A stretch of 49,263 nucleotides of DNA from a bacterium. Its GTDB lineage: Bacteria; Patescibacteriota; Minisyncoccia; Minisyncoccales; CG1-02-41-26. The number at the start of each line of letters is the position of its first letter. Positions within the stretch are counted from its first letter, which is position 1. A program made the position numbers and the translations under genes. Below, one piece after another: positions 7,295 through 40,222 of the stretch. The DNA lies in assembly GCA_030648255.1 (NCBI GenBank), contig JAUSHZ010000025.1:1-49263 (forward strand), in the 5' to 3' direction. The notes under the pieces were generated by a model. It was not told the DNA's origin, ran no database searches, and saw only the letters and a program-made list of their open reading frames with translations.

Positions 7295-7431
7295 ATCCCA
7301 CCATCATTGATTCATTATATTAAACAATAACAATATCTCCAAATTTTCCACCCCGTAAAACCAAAACTCGCCCACAGGCGAGTATTTTTATTTCCCCTTC
7401 TCTCCCTATCCAATTTAATGATGGTATATAA

Positions 7432-7953
7432 TTAATATCTAAAATCTATTAAATTATCGTCGTTAATAAAATCGTTTTTAATAATGTTAAAAAAATCCTC
7501 AAATTCTATTGGCTTGTGTACATTATAATGAGGCGGTACATTATCTAAAACATGTAGATGATCTTTCGGATATTCTTTTCTATTCTCTGCCCTATCCTCT
7601 TTTTGTTCTTTATTCGCATGTGATTCATAGCGAAATTCAAATGTCTTATATCCAGTTTTTTTATTAAGCATGCAAGCAAAAACGTACTCGACATAGGGAA
7701 TTTCAAATCTATAGCTATATTCAACTCTTTTATCATTAATCCAAGTTTCTTGAATTTTTATACAAGAAATAATCTTTTTATGTGTAGATCTTAAAAACAG
7801 AGAGCTATGTATAATCTCATACACGCCCTTGCTAATCGGATTCTCTTTCATTCTTACAACATTCGGTGTTCCATCGCAAAAATATTTTTGATTGTCTGAT
7901 AAAATTTTATTGATTCTGTCAATGTGTCGGCGTAGGTCAGTTATTTTTTGCAT
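7432..7953 (-). CDS. Uncharacterised protein, weak resemblance to DUF6516/TumE-type toxins
   Basis: C-terminal 'FRYESH...DHLHVLDNVPPHYNVHKPIEFEDFFNII'; overlaps the upstream gene by 17 nt. Confidence 0.4.
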   Translation of the reverse strand: MQKITDLRRHIDRINKILSDNQKYFCDGTPNVVRMKENPISKGVYEIIHSSLFLRSTHKKIISCIKIQETWINDKRVEYSYRFEIPYVEYVFACMLNKKTGYKTFEFRYESHANKEQKEDRAENRKEYPKDHLHVLDNVPPHYNVHKPIEFEDFFNIIKNDFINDDNLIDFRY

Positions 7954-10091: not shown

Positions 10092-10200
10092 CGGGGCACG
10101 CTCGTCAACTTGACAAACGGGTTTGAAATTTGCTATCATATAATTAATACTTACGAAAAAGACCCTTATGTGGCTTTATCCATGTCGGGGGCTTTTTCTT
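10092..10200 (+). promoter_or_regulatory. Promoter-hairpin cassette 1 (predicted short RNA antisense to NYN gene 3' end)
   Basis: GGGCACGCTCGT element, -35 TTGACA 10110-10115, 18-bp spacer, -10 TATCAT 10134-10139, hairpin AAAAAGACCC...GGGGGCTTTTTC. Confidence 0.55.
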
Positions 10201-10696
10201 TTCTAACCTGCAAAATATTTATTTGGTCATTTAAATAAGCAATGGGAACATTTATTCTTTTTAAAAGAATTGAGCAAAGTTTTTTGTTATGAGGCGACAA
10301 TATAGCTTTTAGCTTATCTCTTTCTTTGAGAAATTTTATCAAACTGGCATAATCGCCATCGCTAGTAACAATAATCGCTTTTTCAAAACTATTTTCATAA
10401 GCATCCTTCATAGCTTGAACTACTAAATCGGCATCGCAATTACCCTTTGGCTTGCCATTGTTATCATAGATAACTTCTTTAAATATAAGGGTAAATCCTG
10501 CCTCTTGAAGATACGCATACAAATCTTTATATTTAGGAATAAAACCAAGAAATATATAGGCACGATTCACATTATATTTTTGAGAAAGCCAAACACGAAA
10601 ACGGCCATAGTCAAGCTTCCAGCCAAAACCAGCAACGCCACCGTATAAGTTAGCTCCATCTATGTACGCATAATTATTTTGTTGATATTTCAGCAT
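10166..10696 (-). CDS. NYN domain (PIN-like, LabA/DUF88-type) predicted RNase
   Basis: 'YAYIDGANLYGG', 'NCDADLVVQAMKDAYE', 'AIIVTSDGDYASLIKFL'. Confidence 0.8.
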   Translation of the reverse strand: MLKYQQNNYAYIDGANLYGGVAGFGWKLDYGRFRVWLSQKYNVNRAYIFLGFIPKYKDLYAYLQEAGFTLIFKEVIYDNNGKPKGNCDADLVVQAMKDAYENSFEKAIIVTSDGDYASLIKFLKERDKLKAILSPHNKKLCSILLKRINVPIAYLNDQINILQVRKEKAPDMDKAT

Positions 10697-10726: not shown

Positions 10727-10826
10727 GGGCACGCTCGTGGACTTGACAAGCGGGTTTGAAATTTGCTATTATATAAATACAAATCCTCATCGGATGGGTG
10801 TTTACACCGGTTCGTGAGGTTTTTTG
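10727..10826 (+). promoter_or_regulatory. Promoter-hairpin cassette 2 (predicted short RNA antisense to DUF3800 gene 3' end)
   Basis: GGGCACGCTCGT, -35 TTGACA 10743-10748, 18-bp spacer, -10 TATTAT 10767-10772, hairpin CCTCA...GGTGTttACACC...TGAGGTTTTTT. Confidence 0.55.
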
Positions 10827-11467
10827 TTTTTATTAGCAAAAATCATTGCCTTTGCCTCTTTCCAATTTAACAACTGCTCACTGATAATTTTATCTTTAAT
10901 AAGATTATAAAACTTTTCATTTTTTCCTGTATACTTCCAAAGCAAACTCCCTGCTACCATATCCGCTGAATTTATCTCGGGGTTATCCACGCTACTCAAA
11001 TGCTTCAAAATAAACGGTTCGCCTAACAATTCAAGCAATGTCTCGTTAAATTTTATCAAATCATCTTTTTGTTGAAAATGCTTATCAAAAATCACTTCTT
11101 TAATTTTAATATCTTGATAAAAAACTAAACATTCTTTAAGTAAAATGTAGGCAAGCAAAGCAAAATTATCGGGCGTATCTTTTATGCTTTGATTGTTCTT
11201 TTCAATAATTAAAGCGAAAATATTTACATCAGCCAAAGATAGCTCTTTTAGGTAAACAGTTTTTGTGCGTTCGCCTGCTTTGTAAAACTTAACTTCGGAA
11301 ATAACCTTTTCCTTTTTGTCACATGCCATGCTCTTCCTTGCCTTTTTCAACACAGATAAAAGAACTTCTTGAGTATTCACTCCAACAGCGGCCATAATAA
11401 TCACTTTATTTTTTGGGTCGGGTAGAGTTCCCGACTCGTCTATTAAAATAGAAATTTTTGAGTTCAT
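10802..11467 (-). CDS. DUF3800 domain protein
   Basis: 'ISILIDESGTLPDPKNKVIIMAAVGV', 'NSADMVAGSLLWKY'. Confidence 0.75.
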   Translation of the reverse strand: MNSKISILIDESGTLPDPKNKVIIMAAVGVNTQEVLLSVLKKARKSMACDKKEKVISEVKFYKAGERTKTVYLKELSLADVNIFALIIEKNNQSIKDTPDNFALLAYILLKECLVFYQDIKIKEVIFDKHFQQKDDLIKFNETLLELLGEPFILKHLSSVDNPEINSADMVAGSLLWKYTGKNEKFYNLIKDKIISEQLLNWKEAKAMIFANKNKKPHEPV

Positions 11468-28300: not shown

Positions 28301-28380
28301 GCTCCGCTCGCTTGCACTGATTGCTGGTGCACTCAGCATCTTCCTCGCCTTCGCTCGTCGAGCTGTTGTTAGAACTTGTT
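28301..28380 (+). repeat. ~80-bp direct repeat copy 1 with internal hairpin
   Basis: GCTCCGCTCGCTTGCACTGATTGCTGGTGCACTCAGCATCTTCCTCGCCTTCGCTC...AGAACTTGTT matches 30066-30145. Confidence 0.8.
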
Positions 28381-28515
28381 TTATTTCTAAATAGAAAACA
28401 GAGTTGACCCCTATTTCCCCTTTATCTAAAATAAAAACGTTTATGCTATAATATATTAAGGTCGAGCTGTAAAATATTTTTATATTTTTAAATTAAATTA
28501 TTGCAATAAAAAAAT

Positions 28516-29979
28516 ATGATAGAAAAACTCAAAAATAAAAAAGTTCGTGTTGGAATGGCATTCGGCGTGGCTGCTATCGCTGGAATAGTGTTGTTCCAGG
28601 GTGCTATACCAAAAGCGGAAAGCTCAGTGAAAATTAATGCAATTTCTCCAAACCAGGGTGCTGCTGGAACGGAAGTTGTGATAACCGGTTCTGGATTTTC
28701 ATCGTCAGTTCAAGGAATCACCGGTACTCAAATAAACGGAAAGGTGTACGCTCCAGGCAACTACATTTTAATTCAAAGTGAGGTTCTCGAACAACCCATT
28801 CTTTCGCCTGACGGCAAAACGCTAACATTTCATGTTACTCTTATTTCCGACAAAGTTAAGGCGGACTGCGCAGCGAGCTTAGCTAAAATAAAGCCTGGAT
28901 CGTGCAAAGTACAAATCAAAGTGGTGAATGCATATGGTAAGATGAGCCTTGGTCAATATTTTACTATCACAAGTCTCGTGAGTAAAAAACTTACGTACAC
29001 AATCGAAAAACTTGATATGCCAGCACCTGCAATTGTTCATGCCGTGATTCCAGGTCAAAGTTGGAAAGGCGACGATGTGATGCGTATTCGGGTTAGTGCA
29101 CCTGCGACCAATGGAGATACAATAACCGGAGTAATATTCTCAATGGCAACGAACCCAGATGCCTTGGGTACCGGTTATCAGCAATGTGCCTATTTTTATC
29201 CCACAAGTACACCTGACAGTTCTCTCGCAAGCGATGGGACGAGAGTACGGATGCAAGAAGATGGATCGACTGGTTATTGGGGTGGGACGCTTGGTATAGA
29301 TGGCGGCGTATTCATATGGGATCCACAACAGATTCCAGTGGGTTGTTTAGCATATATTGGTGGTTTTCCTCTAGCTCCTGGCGAGCATAAGGACTTTACC
29401 GTAAACATGAAGATGTACGCTCAAAATTACGCATTGGAAGCAGATGGAACATACACACCTCCAGTAGGACAGTCAAAGACATTTAATCTTATGGTTAAAG
29501 CTCGCGCATTATATTTCGGAACTGGTGGTTATGTGATAGATAATTCTCCAGAAAACGGCTATGACAGCACCTTCGATTATTCTGCCGGTTATGGTGGCAA
29601 TGAAATGCGTAGGAGTTTAAGCACATTAATCACAAGCGACCCAATCCAAATAATTCCTCAATCAATACCAACGCCAGCCGGATATTTTACGACAGTTGCA
29701 ACGACGCAATACACAGCAACAGGTACTAATCCTCGTATTATGTATTGGTGGGGAAAAGTAAATCAACATACCGATACAAACGGAAATTGGCTTACTGATT
29801 CCGATGGAATTTCTGGAGCAGATCTAGACAAGCTAACATATTGTAAAAAGTTTTATCAAAATACTATCGGCATTGAAGATTATATATTGGAGACGACAGA
29901 CACATGGCGTGATCGTGGGAATGTTGGTGGGCCGTATACTTCAACTAAAATGTCTACAAAGTGTTTGCAATCAAATTGA
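28516..29979 (+). CDS. Surface/secreted protein with IPT/TIG domain
   Basis: N-terminal TM; IPT/TIG-like 'INAISPNQGAAGTEVVITGSGFSSSV'. Confidence 0.65.
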   Translation: MIEKLKNKKVRVGMAFGVAAIAGIVLFQGAIPKAESSVKINAISPNQGAAGTEVVITGSGFSSSVQGITGTQINGKVYAPGNYILIQSEVLEQPILSPDGKTLTFHVTLISDKVKADCAASLAKIKPGSCKVQIKVVNAYGKMSLGQYFTITSLVSKKLTYTIEKLDMPAPAIVHAVIPGQSWKGDDVMRIRVSAPATNGDTITGVIFSMATNPDALGTGYQQCAYFYPTSTPDSSLASDGTRVRMQEDGSTGYWGGTLGIDGGVFIWDPQQIPVGCLAYIGGFPLAPGEHKDFTVNMKMYAQNYALEADGTYTPPVGQSKTFNLMVKARALYFGTGGYVIDNSPENGYDSTFDYSAGYGGNEMRRSLSTLITSDPIQIIPQSIPTPAGYFTTVATTQYTATGTNPRIMYWWGKVNQHTDTNGNWLTDSDGISGADLDKLTYCKKFYQNTIGIEDYILETTDTWRDRGNVGGPYTSTKMSTKCLQSN

Positions 29980-30065: not shown

Positions 30066-30145
30066 GCTCCGCTCGCTTGCACTGAGCACTGGTGTGCTCA
30101 GCATCTTCCTCGCCTTCGCTCCTTGAGCTGATATTAGAACCTGTT
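30066..30145 (+). repeat. ~80-bp direct repeat copy 2 with perfect hairpin CTGAGCAC-TGGT-GTGCTCAG
   Basis: Read directly; see 28301-28380. Confidence 0.8.
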
Positions 30146-30164
30146 TGGTAAAATTTTAAGTATT

Positions 30165-35423: not shown

Positions 35424-37199
35424 TTAAGCAGGTCTATGTTTAGTTAAGAAATTAATTTTATCCATTACTTCTTTTTGTTTTGATAAATCGCTTGTTCTTT
35501 CTGCTAATTTTAGCTCATCCCCGTATTTTTTCAACTGGTCTTGCCAAGCAACCCTTCTAAAGCCTTCCAAGCAAACTTGAATTTCTTGTTCTGGATCTTC
35601 AACCTCATCACTTTCTGCTTGGAAAAAACAAACATCTAAGGCTGTTTTTATTTCTATGTCGCCTTCAAAATCTTTAATAGCATTTTCTATGGTGGCTATA
35701 TCGCAAACCGCTTTTTCTTTAAAACAAGCGAGCACAGTTTTAAATTGAGGGGAAAACAGGTTAATATCATCTTGGTCCATAAAATCCAGAAGTTGAGGTG
35801 TTTTTAAAGTTAGGGCTAAAATCTTTTCTTCTAATAATTGCTGGCGGTTTTTTTCGTTTTTCGTTAAAACTTCCACATTCGTTGAAGCTTTAGCGGACAG
35901 GTCGGTGGGCAAGGGCAATTTTCTTAATTCTTCAAAAATTGACTCTGTTGAAACTCCCAAGGCGTTTGCAAGTTTTTGCGCCCAATGCGAAACCAAGATA
36001 CTGTTCGGCAATTTTTTAATTTGAGGCAATAATAAATTAGCAATTTGCTTTTTGCTTTGAGGAGTTTGGCCTTTGAATTTTAAAAAAGCGTCTTCAAAGT
36101 AAAATTCGGTTATATCTTTTGCCTCATCAATAGCTTTTTGCCAATTCGCTGGACTCTCAGAGATTATGTCGGCTGGGTCTTTGGTTTCTGGCATTAAAAT
36201 AACTTTTATATCAAAATTTTCTTTCTGGGCTAAGTCAATTCCCCTACCAGTGGCCGAACTCCCAGCTGTGTCTCTATCAAAAGCAGTGTATAAATTGTTG
36301 GTATATCGCTTAATAAACCCGAGCTGAAAATTTGTTAAAGCAGTTCCACTGGCTGCTACCGTGTTTTCAAACCCAGCCTGATGCGACAAAATAACATCCA
36401 TATAGCCTTCGGTTAAAATACAAAAATTATGCTTTCTAATTTCCATTTTGGCAAGATGTAATCCGTAAAGCGCTCGGCTCTTGTCATATAACAAAGTATT
36501 GGGCGTGTTTAAATATTTTGGGCCTTCGTCCTTGTTGCCTTCTATAAAATCTGTTTTCCGAGCGCCAAATCCAATAACCTGTGAATTAATATCAAAAATC
36601 GGAAACATAATTCTGCCCCTAAACCTGTCGTATGGCGTTTGATTATTTTCTTGTGAAACAGCCAAGCCTGCTTTTATAATTTCATCTCTCGTAAATCCCC
36701 TGCCCACCAAAAAATCGCTTAATGCCCGCCACTGGTCAACCGAATAGCCCAACCGCCATTTAGTTATTGTTTCATGAGTAAGCCCTCTTTTTTTAAGATA
36801 CTCTTGGCATTTTTTGCCAGAAACAGTTTCTCCGAATTGTTTTTCAAAAAACTTTGTGGCCAACTCGCAAATTTCCAACAAACGAGTTCTTTCGGTTTGG
36901 TCTTGGGGCTTAAAATCGCTTAATTCAACCCCAGCTCTTTTGGCTAAAATTCTTAAAGCATCGACAAACTCAATGCCCTCGATTTTCATTATAAAATCAA
37001 ACACGGACCCACTTTGACCACATCCGAAGCATTTGAACATTTGCCTGCTTGGGGACACAAAAAAAGAAGGCCCTTTTTCTTGATGAAAAGGACACCTGGC
37101 TCTTAAGTTTATACCAGTTTTTTCCAGCTTTAAATAACCAGAAACCACTTCAACAATATCCAACCGCTCTTTTATTTGTTGAACCTGCGCATTTGCCAT
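35424..37199 (-). CDS. dnaG: DNA primase
   Basis: Zinc finger 'CPFHQEKGPSFFVSPSRQMFKCFGCG', TOPRIM 'LTEGYMDVILSHQAGFENTVAASGTALT'. Confidence 0.95.
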   Translation of the reverse strand: MANAQVQQIKERLDIVEVVSGYLKLEKTGINLRARCPFHQEKGPSFFVSPSRQMFKCFGCGQSGSVFDFIMKIEGIEFVDALRILAKRAGVELSDFKPQDQTERTRLLEICELATKFFEKQFGETVSGKKCQEYLKKRGLTHETITKWRLGYSVDQWRALSDFLVGRGFTRDEIIKAGLAVSQENNQTPYDRFRGRIMFPIFDINSQVIGFGARKTDFIEGNKDEGPKYLNTPNTLLYDKSRALYGLHLAKMEIRKHNFCILTEGYMDVILSHQAGFENTVAASGTALTNFQLGFIKRYTNNLYTAFDRDTAGSSATGRGIDLAQKENFDIKVILMPETKDPADIISESPANWQKAIDEAKDITEFYFEDAFLKFKGQTPQSKKQIANLLLPQIKKLPNSILVSHWAQKLANALGVSTESIFEELRKLPLPTDLSAKASTNVEVLTKNEKNRQQLLEEKILALTLKTPQLLDFMDQDDINLFSPQFKTVLACFKEKAVCDIATIENAIKDFEGDIEIKTALDVCFFQAESDEVEDPEQEIQVCLEGFRRVAWQDQLKKYGDELKLAERTSDLSKQKEVMDKINFLTKHRPA

Positions 37200-37427
37200 G
37201 TTAGAAATTCTTAATTGAATGGCGAACGATTAGTGAGCCGTGAAATTTAGAAATTCTTACACCCCGTTAAGTGCGAGCCTGCCCGCAGTGCTACAGCGTT
37301 GCAGGCGGGCGATGAGCGAGCTACTTAACTGGGGTTATCTATATTCTTATCCACACCCCAGTGAAGTAAAATTTGAGTACAAATTTTAATTTTAAATTAG
37401 CAAATTTAAAATTACTTCACGGGGTAA
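37200..37427. mobile_element. MITE-like relative of the GIY-YIG element (no ORF)
   Basis: Left part resembles 42805-42886; IR acaccccagtgaagtaaaatttgag (37353-) / aaatttaaaattacttcacggggtaa (37402-37427); last 26 nt identical to 43133-43158. Confidence 0.55.
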
Positions 37428-37537: not shown

Positions 37538-37570
37538 AACACCAAAAGGGGTTGTTCTATTTTTTATCTC
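37538..37570 (+). terminator. Hairpin with U-tract between a TTGACA promoter and the 108-aa ORF
   Basis: AGAACACCaaaaGGGGTTGTTCTATTTTTTAT. Confidence 0.6.
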
Positions 37571-37591
37571 CCCACGAAAGGAAGTGATAAA

Positions 37592-37918
37592 ATGGAAGAA
37601 AAAGCTTTTACATGGCAAGGATTACCCATTAAGCAGTGGAAAAATATCTCAGTAGCCGTACTTCTGAAAACCTCAATGGACATATTAGAGGTTATTGCCT
37701 CTGCTGGCTGGCCAATTAGAATCTTGAAAGACAATGTCTTTCAATTTGGCCAAGATAATATCGGTACTATAGAAAGCTTCGAAATACAAAGGGGATCTGT
37801 AATAATAAACTTAAAACTTATGAATATAGATCCAGAACTAAAAAGGAGCAACGTCCATGCTGTTAAGCTATCGAAAAAGAATGGTTTCAGCTTGGGATTG
37901 CCAGTATTTAAAAAATAA
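37592..37918 (+). CDS. Hypothetical protein, 108 aa
   Basis: ORF with SD (GAAAGGAAG) upstream. Confidence 0.5.
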   Translation: MEEKAFTWQGLPIKQWKNISVAVLLKTSMDILEVIASAGWPIRILKDNVFQFGQDNIGTIESFEIQRGSVIINLKLMNIDPELKRSNVHAVKLSKKNGFSLGLPVFKK

Positions 37919-37935
37919 AGACAACCCCTTAGAAA

Positions 37936-37998
37936 TAAAAAGGGCTACCATATAATTCTCAAAAATAATTTAGAGAATTGGTTAGCCCTTTTTAGCTA
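37936..37998. terminator. Long bipartite hairpin terminator
   Basis: AAAAAGGGCTacc..ATTCTC..GAGAAT..gttAGCCCTTTTTAG. Confidence 0.75.
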
Positions 37999-38015: not shown

Positions 38016-38050
38016 TAGCGTTTAAAGTTGGCGGTGATAATGATTTGACT
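38016..38050 (-). repeat. Detached duplicate of mscS 3' end (direct repeat flanking R-M)
   Basis: Minus strand encodes SQIIITANFKR*; ~30/35 nt identical to 39681-39715. Confidence 0.85.
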
Positions 38051-38681
38051 ACTCTTCGTTCCAATAATCAACCCACCTATCATAAGAATTATATTTTATT
38101 TCTTCTCTTTTCCAAAAAATCTCAATCTTTTTAATTTTTGGATTTTTTGTCAATTGGTCTAATGCCGCAGAGCTTAATTCTACTCCTCTTGGATTTGTTC
38201 CTTGCTTTGGAAGCCTTATGTATTTTTTTCTGCCTATTTTTTTCAAAACTTCTTCCTGCACTTCTTTTGGCAAAAGATAAAAATAACCCATACCACCCCA
38301 GTTTATTTGGACTAAAATAGTATCGCAAGTTGGCTTATAGGCCTTACTAAATTCTATCGCTTTTTTAGGATCAACTGTCCAAATTAACTTAACTCCATTT
38401 ATTTTCTTACCAGACGCAGTTTTTATTGATAACGGCTTATTAAATAATATAACATCTGTTTCGGCTTTAGTTATAGGTATATTTGTTTTTACATCTTCTG
38501 ATCCAAATTTATAAATCAGTAATGCGATTACAATTCTTTCTCTTGCTGAACCCACCTCCATACCCAGCTTACCATCTCTTGAGTTATCTATTTCTGCTAA
38601 TTGAAAAAGATATAGTAGCTTCTTTTTTATTTTCTCTACTATTTTTGAATCTTCAAAAATAGATTCTATGCTCTTTTTCAT
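38049..38681 (-). CDS. Type II restriction endonuclease, ThaI-like family
   Basis: 'ETDVILFNKPLSIKTASGKKINGVKLIWTVDPKKA...CDTILVQINWGGMGYFYLLP'; overlaps the C5-methyltransferase gene by 4 nt. Confidence 0.75.
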   Translation of the reverse strand: MKKSIESIFEDSKIVEKIKKKLLYLFQLAEIDNSRDGKLGMEVGSARERIVIALLIYKFGSEDVKTNIPITKAETDVILFNKPLSIKTASGKKINGVKLIWTVDPKKAIEFSKAYKPTCDTILVQINWGGMGYFYLLPKEVQEEVLKKIGRKKYIRLPKQGTNPRGVELSSAALDQLTKNPKIKKIEIFWKREEIKYNSYDRWVDYWNEE

Positions 38682-39676
38682 AAGTATTTATTTAAAAAAT
38701 TTTCAACTTCCCCCGCAATGTGCCAAGCAAAAACAGGAGGAACTGCGTTTCCTATTTGTTTATATGCGCTTGATGTTGATGGATAGAAAATAAAATCGTC
38801 TGGAAAAGATTGAATTCTTGCCGCCTCTCTTGCTGATAATCTTCTTTTTTTGTTCCAGTGAAATTCGATATTGCCATGATGTTCGGCTCTCATTGTTGGC
38901 CCAATTTTGTCTTTATTAACGAAACTATTACCTTGAGTGCCAGCAAAATATTTTGCCTTTGACCAAAAATGATTATGTGCATCGCCTTCTTTTACTTCCT
39001 CTAGATCGCCAATAGCCTCTGACAAAGTTATTCTTTTCTCTTTATTAAGAACTGGCTCAGGAAAAATAAATTTTGGTAAATTTCTTTTCTTATCAATGCC
39101 AATGATAATAACCCTCTCTCTATTTTCTGGTACCCCAAAGTCAGCTACATGAAACAATTTATAATCAACATCGTAGTCAAGATTGGCAAAATCTTCTTTT
39201 ATGGTTTCTATGGCTTTGCCGTTGTTCATACTTAACAACCCCTTTACATTTTCCGCAATAAACAATATTGGCCTAACCCTTCTAACAGTTTCAACCATAC
39301 TCTTATAAAGATTTCCCCTTTTTGTTTCAAATCCTTTTCTTTTACCGGCTAAACTAAAATCTTGGCAGGGAAAACCGCCAACTACAACATCGGCAGATTC
39401 TGGCATCTTAGGACTAAATAAATCTGGATAATTATTATTTAATAATTTTACGATATCTCCACAAACAATTATTTTCTTTAAGTTTTTCCGAAATGTAAAA
39501 CAAGCATTTTCATCAATATCGTTTGCCCAAATAACATCAAAATTTCTTTTTCCAAAATTTTTACCGAAAACATTAAAATTACCAGTTAAGCCCAGATCTA
39601 AACCACCACAACCAGCAAAGAGCGAAACAGTTGAATATTTTTTCTCTTTTTTATTGTTTAGTTTATGTTCTAACAT
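38678..39676 (-). CDS. DNA (cytosine-5-)-methyltransferase
   Basis: 'SLFAGCGGLDLGL', 'GGFPCQDFSLAGKRKG', 'AENVKGL', 'QIGNAVPP'. Confidence 0.95.
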   Translation of the reverse strand: MLEHKLNNKKEKKYSTVSLFAGCGGLDLGLTGNFNVFGKNFGKRNFDVIWANDIDENACFTFRKNLKKIIVCGDIVKLLNNNYPDLFSPKMPESADVVVGGFPCQDFSLAGKRKGFETKRGNLYKSMVETVRRVRPILFIAENVKGLLSMNNGKAIETIKEDFANLDYDVDYKLFHVADFGVPENRERVIIIGIDKKRNLPKFIFPEPVLNKEKRITLSEAIGDLEEVKEGDAHNHFWSKAKYFAGTQGNSFVNKDKIGPTMRAEHHGNIEFHWNKKRRLSAREAARIQSFPDDFIFYPSTSSAYKQIGNAVPPVFAWHIAGEVENFLNKYL

Positions 39677-39679
39677 CTT

Positions 39680-40222
39680 CTAACGTTTAAAATTGGCGGT
39701 GACAATTATTTGGCTGTTGGGCACATAAAATAACTCGTTGTTTTCTCCCCGCAAAACAGTGCGCCTTAAATTAAAATCCTCCACATATCCTGTTTTTCCG
39801 CCAGCCTCTATTTTTTCACCCACTCTGTACTGATCTTCCAATAAAATCATAATGCCAGAAATATAATCTTTGATAATAGCTTGCGAGGCCAAGCCCAAGG
39901 CCAATCCCCCAACCCCCAAAACCGCTAAAACCGGCGCAATATTTATACCAAAAACCGGCAATAATGTTAAAATCGCAATTATCCAAATAGCCGTTGAAAA
40001 AATTGAGCCAAAAGCTTTTTTTAATGTTTCTATGCGCTTTTCGTTCATTGTTTTCGGGTCGGTTGAGGAAATTCTCTTTCTAACCAATCGTTCGGTAATT
40101 TTTTTTACCAAGCCCAAAGAAAACCTATTGGCCAAATAAGCAACCAATAAAACTAAGGCAATCCGCAAGCCCGGAGTTAAAACTGAAGAAATTATTTCAC
40201 TTGCTGTAATGTCATTTATCAT
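39680..40222 (-). CDS. MscS-like mechanosensitive channel family protein
   Basis: 'VLGVGGLALGLASQAIIKDYISGIMILLEDQYRVGEKIEAGGKTGYVEDFNLRRTVLR'. Confidence 0.85.
   Translation of the reverse strand: MINDITASEIISSVLTPGLRIALVLLVAYLANRFSLGLVKKITERLVRKRISSTDPKTMNEKRIETLKKAFGSIFSTAIWIIAILTLLPVFGINIAPVLAVLGVGGLALGLASQAIIKDYISGIMILLEDQYRVGEKIEAGGKTGYVEDFNLRRTVLRGENNELFYVPNSQIIVTANFKR

What the first reader, a model, noticed from the sequence alone, without database searches (positions are those of the whole stretch)
38016..39715. R-M module inserted between mscS and its terminator, with duplication of the mscS 3' end
Seen: the ThaI-like nuclease/C5-MTase pair (38049-39676) is flanked by direct repeats TARCGTTTAAARTTGGCGGTGAYAATKATTTGRCT (38016-38050 and 39681-39715). 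The repeat is the mscS tail: the intact gene ends SQIIVTANFKR* and the orphan copy still encodes SQIIITANFKR*. The orphan copy lies next to a strong hairpin terminator (37936-37998), as expected for the ancestral gene end. Inference: the module arrived by integration or recombination that uses the 3' end of a protein gene and restores it, as tRNA-targeting islands do, but with no integrase in the insert. The divergence between copies suggests the incoming DNA carried its own tail.
Basis: partly seen in the sequence, partly recalled or inferred. Interest (0 to 1): 0.75.

Follow-up and report, generated by a model that had tools for sequence, protein, structure and literature searches.

The report
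R-M genes inserted behind mscS
A two-gene restriction-modification defence cassette has been spliced in directly behind a membrane-channel gene of a small-genome bacterium, leaving that gene intact but with a second, orphaned copy of its last 12 codons beyond the cassette: a well-documented instance of a known way in which such cassettes move, not a new system.

Summary
A C5-methyltransferase/ThaI-type nuclease pair (38049-39676) sits between two 35-nt copies (30/35 identical) of the mscS 3' end. Two congeneric genomes have mscS running straight into the terminator region, with no R-M genes and no second tail, so this is an insertion into an ancestral empty site. The tails differ at six positions, five of them synonymous (P about 0.005 for neutral decay), so they probably diverged as parts of working mscS genes, and one arrived with the insert.

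The tRNA-island analogy is not supported. ThaI modules in eight other genomes lie at unrelated sites, none beside mscS; the seven with both edges readable have no flanking repeats. The only tyrosine recombinase found in the genome is Xer-like. The right junction looks like microhomology: the nuclease stop codon TAG coincides with bases of the mscS tail.

Best reading: incoming DNA carrying an mscS tail plus the R-M pair joined by homology on the mscS side and illegitimately on the other. This resembles the published 'insertion with long target duplication' of R-M systems, with the twist that one copy seems immigrant. The nuclease is under purifying selection (dN/dS 0.07). The immediate donor was not found.

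The parts
39680..40222 (-). mscS-type mechanosensitive channel gene, intact, with the upstream (gene-restoring) tail
   Evidence: PF00924/PF21088; 86% aa identity to G001; divergence from G001 uniform along the gene
39681..39715 (-). tail copy 1 (3' end of intact mscS)
   Evidence: direct repeat D1
38678..39676 (-). C5 cytosine DNA methyltransferase; start codon 3 nt after the mscS stop
   Evidence: PF00145 261 bits; TIGR00675; 88% identical to the MTase in L043
38049..38681 (-). ThaI-family restriction endonuclease; start overlaps the MTase stop by 4 nt; stop TAG coincides with the start of the orphan tail
   Evidence: PF15514 287 bits; PDB 3ndh ThaI E=4.5e-71; dN/dS 0.066 against L043
38016..38051 (-). 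orphan mscS tail (SQIIITANFKR*), not in frame with the nuclease
   Evidence: contiguous with ancestral 3' flank by alignment to G001
37936..37998 (.). hairpin between the convergent genes, probable bidirectional terminator of the mscS operon
   Evidence: sequence read directly; corresponding region in G001
37592..37918 (+). convergent 108-aa ORF, ancestral right-hand neighbour of the site
   Evidence: homologues found only in G001 and G002 among 120 relatives, both next to mscS

Best explanation
A type II R-M pair (C5 MTase plus ThaI-family nuclease) was inserted into the mscS-terminator junction by recombination that used mscS itself as the anchor. Incoming DNA carried the 3' end of another mscS allele followed directly by the MTase and nuclease genes. 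On the mscS side it joined by homology and so restored the gene. On the other side it joined illegitimately, at a few bases of microhomology, inside the resident mscS tail; the 36-nt remainder of that tail is the orphan. Because the MTase start lies 3 nt behind mscS and the nuclease start overlaps the MTase stop, the pair probably rides on the mscS operon transcript and ends at its old terminator. Shown: insertion, empty site, orphan tail contiguous with ancestral flank, nuclease under purifying selection. Statistically supported: separate origin of the two tails. Inferred: DNA uptake as the route, homology on one side and microhomology on the other, congeneric donor, operon expression.
For: Empty sites in G001 and G002 with conserved neighbours; the window's flanks joined at the repeat align with G001 continuously except for short gaps around the hairpin. 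Six tail differences, five synonymous: P(at most 1 aa change | 6 random substitutions) = 0.005; the four changes polarised to the orphan by G001 are all silent, P = 0.003. The two tails are about as far apart (6/36) as either is from G001 (6 and 8), pointing to a congeneric source. The nuclease stop is TAA in L043 and L044 but TAG here, coinciding with the TAG in the mscS codons AAT-AGT: a 2-4 nt microhomology. dN/dS 0.066 for the nuclease. Homologues up to 86% identical in another family imply horizontal spread. The genome encodes a ComEC-type DNA channel. Literature: R-M systems can insert with long, variable target duplications (PMC3874152; PMC1643837); homology-facilitated illegitimate recombination is documented in competent bacteria (PMC6382021).
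Against: No donor with an mscS'-R-M arrangement was found. mscS shows no mosaic boundary against G001, so the homologous crossover is invisible. The tail test rests on six substitutions in 36 nt and on one close outgroup. The junction microhomology is short and could be coincidence. ComEC shows capacity for uptake, not uptake of this DNA.
Confidence: 0.5

Rival explanations
1. One-step insertion with long target duplication: the resident tail was duplicated when the R-M pair inserted, and the copies diverged afterwards, one under selection and one freely.
For: Same final anatomy; published for R-M systems with duplications in the order of 100 bp (PMC3874152). Needs no donor mscS.
Against: The orphan's polarised changes are all synonymous (P about 0.003) and total divergence looks coding (P about 0.005).
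Confidence: 0.27
2. Site-specific integration at the 3' end of mscS by a recombinase acting in trans, the insert carrying a gene-restoring attachment site as tRNA islands do.
For: Gene restored exactly, short imperfect repeat at both ends, diverged tail.
Against: No integrase in the insert; the only tyrosine recombinase found in the genome is Xer-like; other ThaI modules use other sites, without repeats where testable; no second mscS tail clear of chance in eight relatives with wide flanks. Serine recombinases were not searched for genome-wide.
Confidence: 0.08
3. An earlier tandem arrangement mscS-R-M-mscS' lost nearly all of the downstream mscS', leaving only its last 36 nt.
For: Adjacent pairs of mscS-like matches occur in the order (G043, G028); would explain two coding-diverged tails.
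Against: Needs an extra step and a deletion ending precisely at the nuclease stop codon; only one mscS match found in this genome.
Confidence: 0.1
4. Assembly artefact: two strain variants of the locus joined in a draft genome.
For: The genome is in 33 contigs, so probably a draft assembly.
Against: The longest exact stretch shared with G001 at the right junction is 9 nt, short for k-mer joining; both flanks are ancestral and in order.
Confidence: 0.05

Closest known systems
R-M insertion with long target duplication (Nobusato et al. 2000, Helicobacter pylori; as described in PMC3874152 and PMC1643837)
   Same: R-M unit inserted with direct repeats of host sequence at both ends; empty site in relatives
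   Different: Repeat here is 35 nt (review: order of 100 bp) and imperfect, with coding-type divergence suggesting one immigrant copy
ThaI restriction endonuclease (PF15514, PDB 3ndh)
   Same: Nuclease matches over its full length; paired here with a C5 methyltransferase
   Different: Specificity not tested; in L047, L065, L066, L067 and L069 the nuclease lies beside a different, non-C5 methyltransferase-like ORF
tRNA/gene-3'-end targeting genomic islands
   Same: Insert restores the 3' end of its target and leaves a displaced copy
   Different: No integrase in the insert; no repeat use of the site found; target is a protein gene not known to me as an attachment site
Homology-facilitated illegitimate recombination in natural transformation (PMC6382021 and references therein)
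   Same: One homologous side and one microhomologous side are what it would leave
   Different: Homologous crossover not visible here; process not observed

Membership tests
ThaI-family type II restriction endonuclease (PF15514) | Full-length match above the curated cut-off | tested here: met
   287.4 bits against cut-off 25, profile 1-203/203; 3ndh E=4.5e-71
ThaI-family type II restriction endonuclease (PF15514) | Cleavage at the ThaI recognition site | not testable with these tools
   Sequence only; CGCG under-representation is equal in G000 (0.61) and R-M-free G001 (0.58), so uninformative
C5 cytosine DNA methyltransferase | PF00145/TIGR00675 match | tested here: met
   261 bits; 242.5 bits against cut-off 100.65
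R-M insertion with long target duplication | Empty site in a relative and flanking direct repeats of target sequence | tested here: met
   G001, G002; repeat
R-M insertion with long target duplication | Both repeats derived from one resident sequence | tested here: inconclusive
   Coding-type divergence argues against, on six substitutions
Integrase-driven gene-3'-end island | Integrase in the insert | tested here: not met
   The 1.6 kb between the repeats is filled by the two R-M genes
Integrase-driven gene-3'-end island | Same attachment site used by other inserts | tested here: inconclusive
   No second tail clear of chance in eight relatives with 1.7-6 kb read downstream; on 28 relatives reached only 0.6-1.5 kb, too short to see an insert of this size; tail pattern absent from viral contigs

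The most novel reading that the evidence does not exclude
In these small-genome bacteria, defence gene pairs are regularly slotted behind housekeeping genes by incoming DNA that brings its own copy of the gene's 3' end, so that gene tails act as portable landing sites without any dedicated recombinase.
Probability: 0.06. Interest if true: 0.65.

Novelty: new member of a known kind. Interest (0 to 1): 0.3.

Why it matters
It gives a clean before-and-after picture of an R-M pair entering a reduced genome, and the coding-type divergence of the two tails is a small, testable argument that such duplications can be immigrant rather than made on the spot. It does not point to a new mechanism or system.

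Tried and rejected
(1) ThaI modules in eight other genomes (L043=L068, L044, L047, L048, L065, L066, L067, L069) checked for boundary repeats. None in the seven with both edges readable. L065's contig ends inside its methyltransferase, so only its left edge could be compared, with nothing clear of chance (22/30 against a null maximum of 21). L070 is only a nuclease fragment and was not tested. My notebook checkpoint overstates this as nine genomes and nine sites without repeats, all CPR; L044's record is titled only 'bacterium' and its lineage was not determined. (2) mscS 3' ends of relatives searched for a repeated tail. The first search held only 0.6-1.5 kb downstream in 28 relatives (L028's contig ends at the gene) and missed the orphan in the window's own locus L004, so it is not evidence against inserts of this length. 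Repeated with wider flanks in eight relatives, with the window as positive control (30/36): best scores 20-23 against null maxima of 20-23. L037 (the wider stretch of L008) reaches 23 against 22 and was not pursued. (3) Nuclease in phage, plasmid and viral collections: no match; tail pattern in viral contigs: none. (4) CGCG avoidance as a sign of activity: no contrast with R-M-free G001. (5) Mosaic boundary in mscS: none. (6) Empty site for the L043 module in its genus: neighbours not conserved enough. No structure was predicted, as the family has a solved member.

Full report
Observation. The window is contig 15 of an 846.6-kb genome in 33 contigs. On the minus strand, mscS (39680-40222) is followed 3 nt later by a C5 DNA methyltransferase (38678-39676), whose stop overlaps the start of a ThaI-family nuclease (38049-38681). 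A 35-nt direct repeat, 86% identical, brackets the pair. It is the mscS 3' end: SQIIVTANFKR* in the gene, SQIIITANFKR* in the orphan. The match exceeds shuffled controls, and of 382 ORF tails screened in 318 kb it is the only one with a copy of 30/36 or better.

Empty site. In G001 (same genus, mscS 86% identical) mscS runs into a hairpin region, a convergent ORF related to the window's 108-aa ORF, and dnaG, with no R-M genes. G002 has the same layout downstream of mscS. Joining the window's flanks at the repeat gives an alignment to G001 that is continuous across the site, with short gaps only around the hairpin. The orphan tail is therefore contiguous with the ancestral right flank, and the R-M pair is the insertion. 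Only G000 of the 24 genomes searched in its family has a ThaI nuclease.

The two tails. They differ at six of 36 positions; five differences are synonymous, including TAG/TAA, and one is V/I. Random substitution gives at most one amino-acid change in 0.5% of simulations; the four changes that G001 polarises to the orphan are all silent, P = 0.003. The orphan follows the nuclease stop in another frame. The simplest reading is that both tails belonged to functional mscS genes until recently and that one arrived with the insert. The caveats are the short length and a single close outgroup. Distances between the three tails (6, 6 and 8 of 36) suggest a source at congeneric distance.

Junctions. 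Against G001 the mscS-derived orphan segment starts at 38051, so the nuclease stop TAG is also the TAG in the mscS codons AAT-AGT. In L043 and L044 the nuclease ends in TAA. Two to four shared bases at this junction fit illegitimate joining. On the left the MTase start follows the mscS stop by 3 nt, so any promoter of its own would have to lie inside mscS; expression from the mscS operon is inferred.

Is it a targeting element? ThaI nucleases were found in eight other genomes besides a fragment in G553: L043/L068 (the same contig; record titled Candidatus Staskawiczbacteria), L044 (record titled only 'bacterium', lineage not determined), and L047, L048, L065, L066, L067 and L069 from genomes of the window's phylum, class or order. 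None lies beside an mscS-like gene recognisable in the stretches read. L066 sits between genes that I read as pilB and pilT, and L069, with a split nuclease frame, between genes that I read as enolase and phosphoglycerate mutase; these names come from the ORF sequences, not from family searches. Seven of the eight were tested at both edges and show no flanking repeat above shuffles; L065's contig ends inside the neighbouring gene, so its right edge is missing.

Other mscS loci. A first search downstream of mscS in 28 relatives turned out to be too short in reach (0.6-1.5 kb): it missed the orphan in the window's own locus. The repeat of the search on eight relatives with 1.7-6 kb downstream, with the window as positive control, found nothing clear of chance. 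This covers few genomes, so use of the site by other inserts is not excluded. The only tyrosine recombinase found in G000 is, by my reading of its sequence, Xer-like; serine recombinases were not searched. The nuclease has no match in the plasmid, phage or viral collections as searched.

Function. The nuclease keeps the residues invariant across seven aligned homologues, itself included, and shows dN/dS 0.066 against L043; the MTase matches PF00145 and TIGR00675. An active type II R-M system is likely. CGCG, the ThaI site by general knowledge, is no rarer here than in G001, so genome composition does not help.

Mechanism and literature. R-M systems are described as able to insert with long and variable target duplications (PMC3874152; PMC1643837 on Nobusato et al.). 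Homology-facilitated illegitimate recombination in competent cells is described in PMC6382021. The genome encodes a ComEC-type protein, and DNA uptake by bacteria of this kind is proposed in PMC12455944. I favour DNA uptake with one homologous and one microhomologous end; duplication in place is the main rival.

Verdict. Real, cleanly documented, and of a known kind. The tRNA-island analogy finds no support in what was tested. Interest 0.3.

Noticed in passing
window 37546-37930; L034 about 7400-7850; L006 1070-1420: The 108-aa convergent ORF is bracketed by complementary segments (AAGGGGTTGT / ACAACCCCTT); G002 appears to have a compensated version (GGGTGCTC / GAGCACCC). Read by eye; homologues found only in the genus.
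   Followed up: partly
window 37193-37420; L091 190-380, 1362-1540, 2776-2930, 3977-4130: A composite palindromic repeat (ACACCCCGTTAAG...TACTTAACTGGGGT, CTTCACGGGGTAA, TTCTAACATG) recurs between genes, including what look like ribosomal protein genes, often just upstream of start codons; parts of it also in G001.
   Followed up: partly
window 10094-10146 and 10727-10779: A 53-nt direct repeat, 91% identical, containing a promoter-like sequence, flanks a 176-aa ORF (10166-10696, minus). No syntenic stretch was found in G001, so no empty site could be read.
   Followed up: partly
window 10760-10848; G001:C1:76711-76798: A stretch of about 88 nt with a terminator-like hairpin is 90% identical at another place in G001; no Rfam match at gathering threshold in the window.
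   Followed up: no
window 28301-28381 and 30066-30146: An 81-nt direct repeat, 88% identical, flanks a 487-aa ORF (28516-29979); only short matches to this stretch in G001 and G002.
   Followed up: partly
L047, L065, L066, L067, L069: ThaI-type nucleases here lie beside a different methyltransferase-like ORF (TSPPYN motif in L047 and L065) instead of the C5 enzyme, suggesting partner exchange.
   Followed up: no
L038 6591-11446 and L037 1526-5061: In two genomes of genus g15 a block of glycosyltransferase-like ORFs (my reading) separates mscS from dnaG.
   Followed up: no
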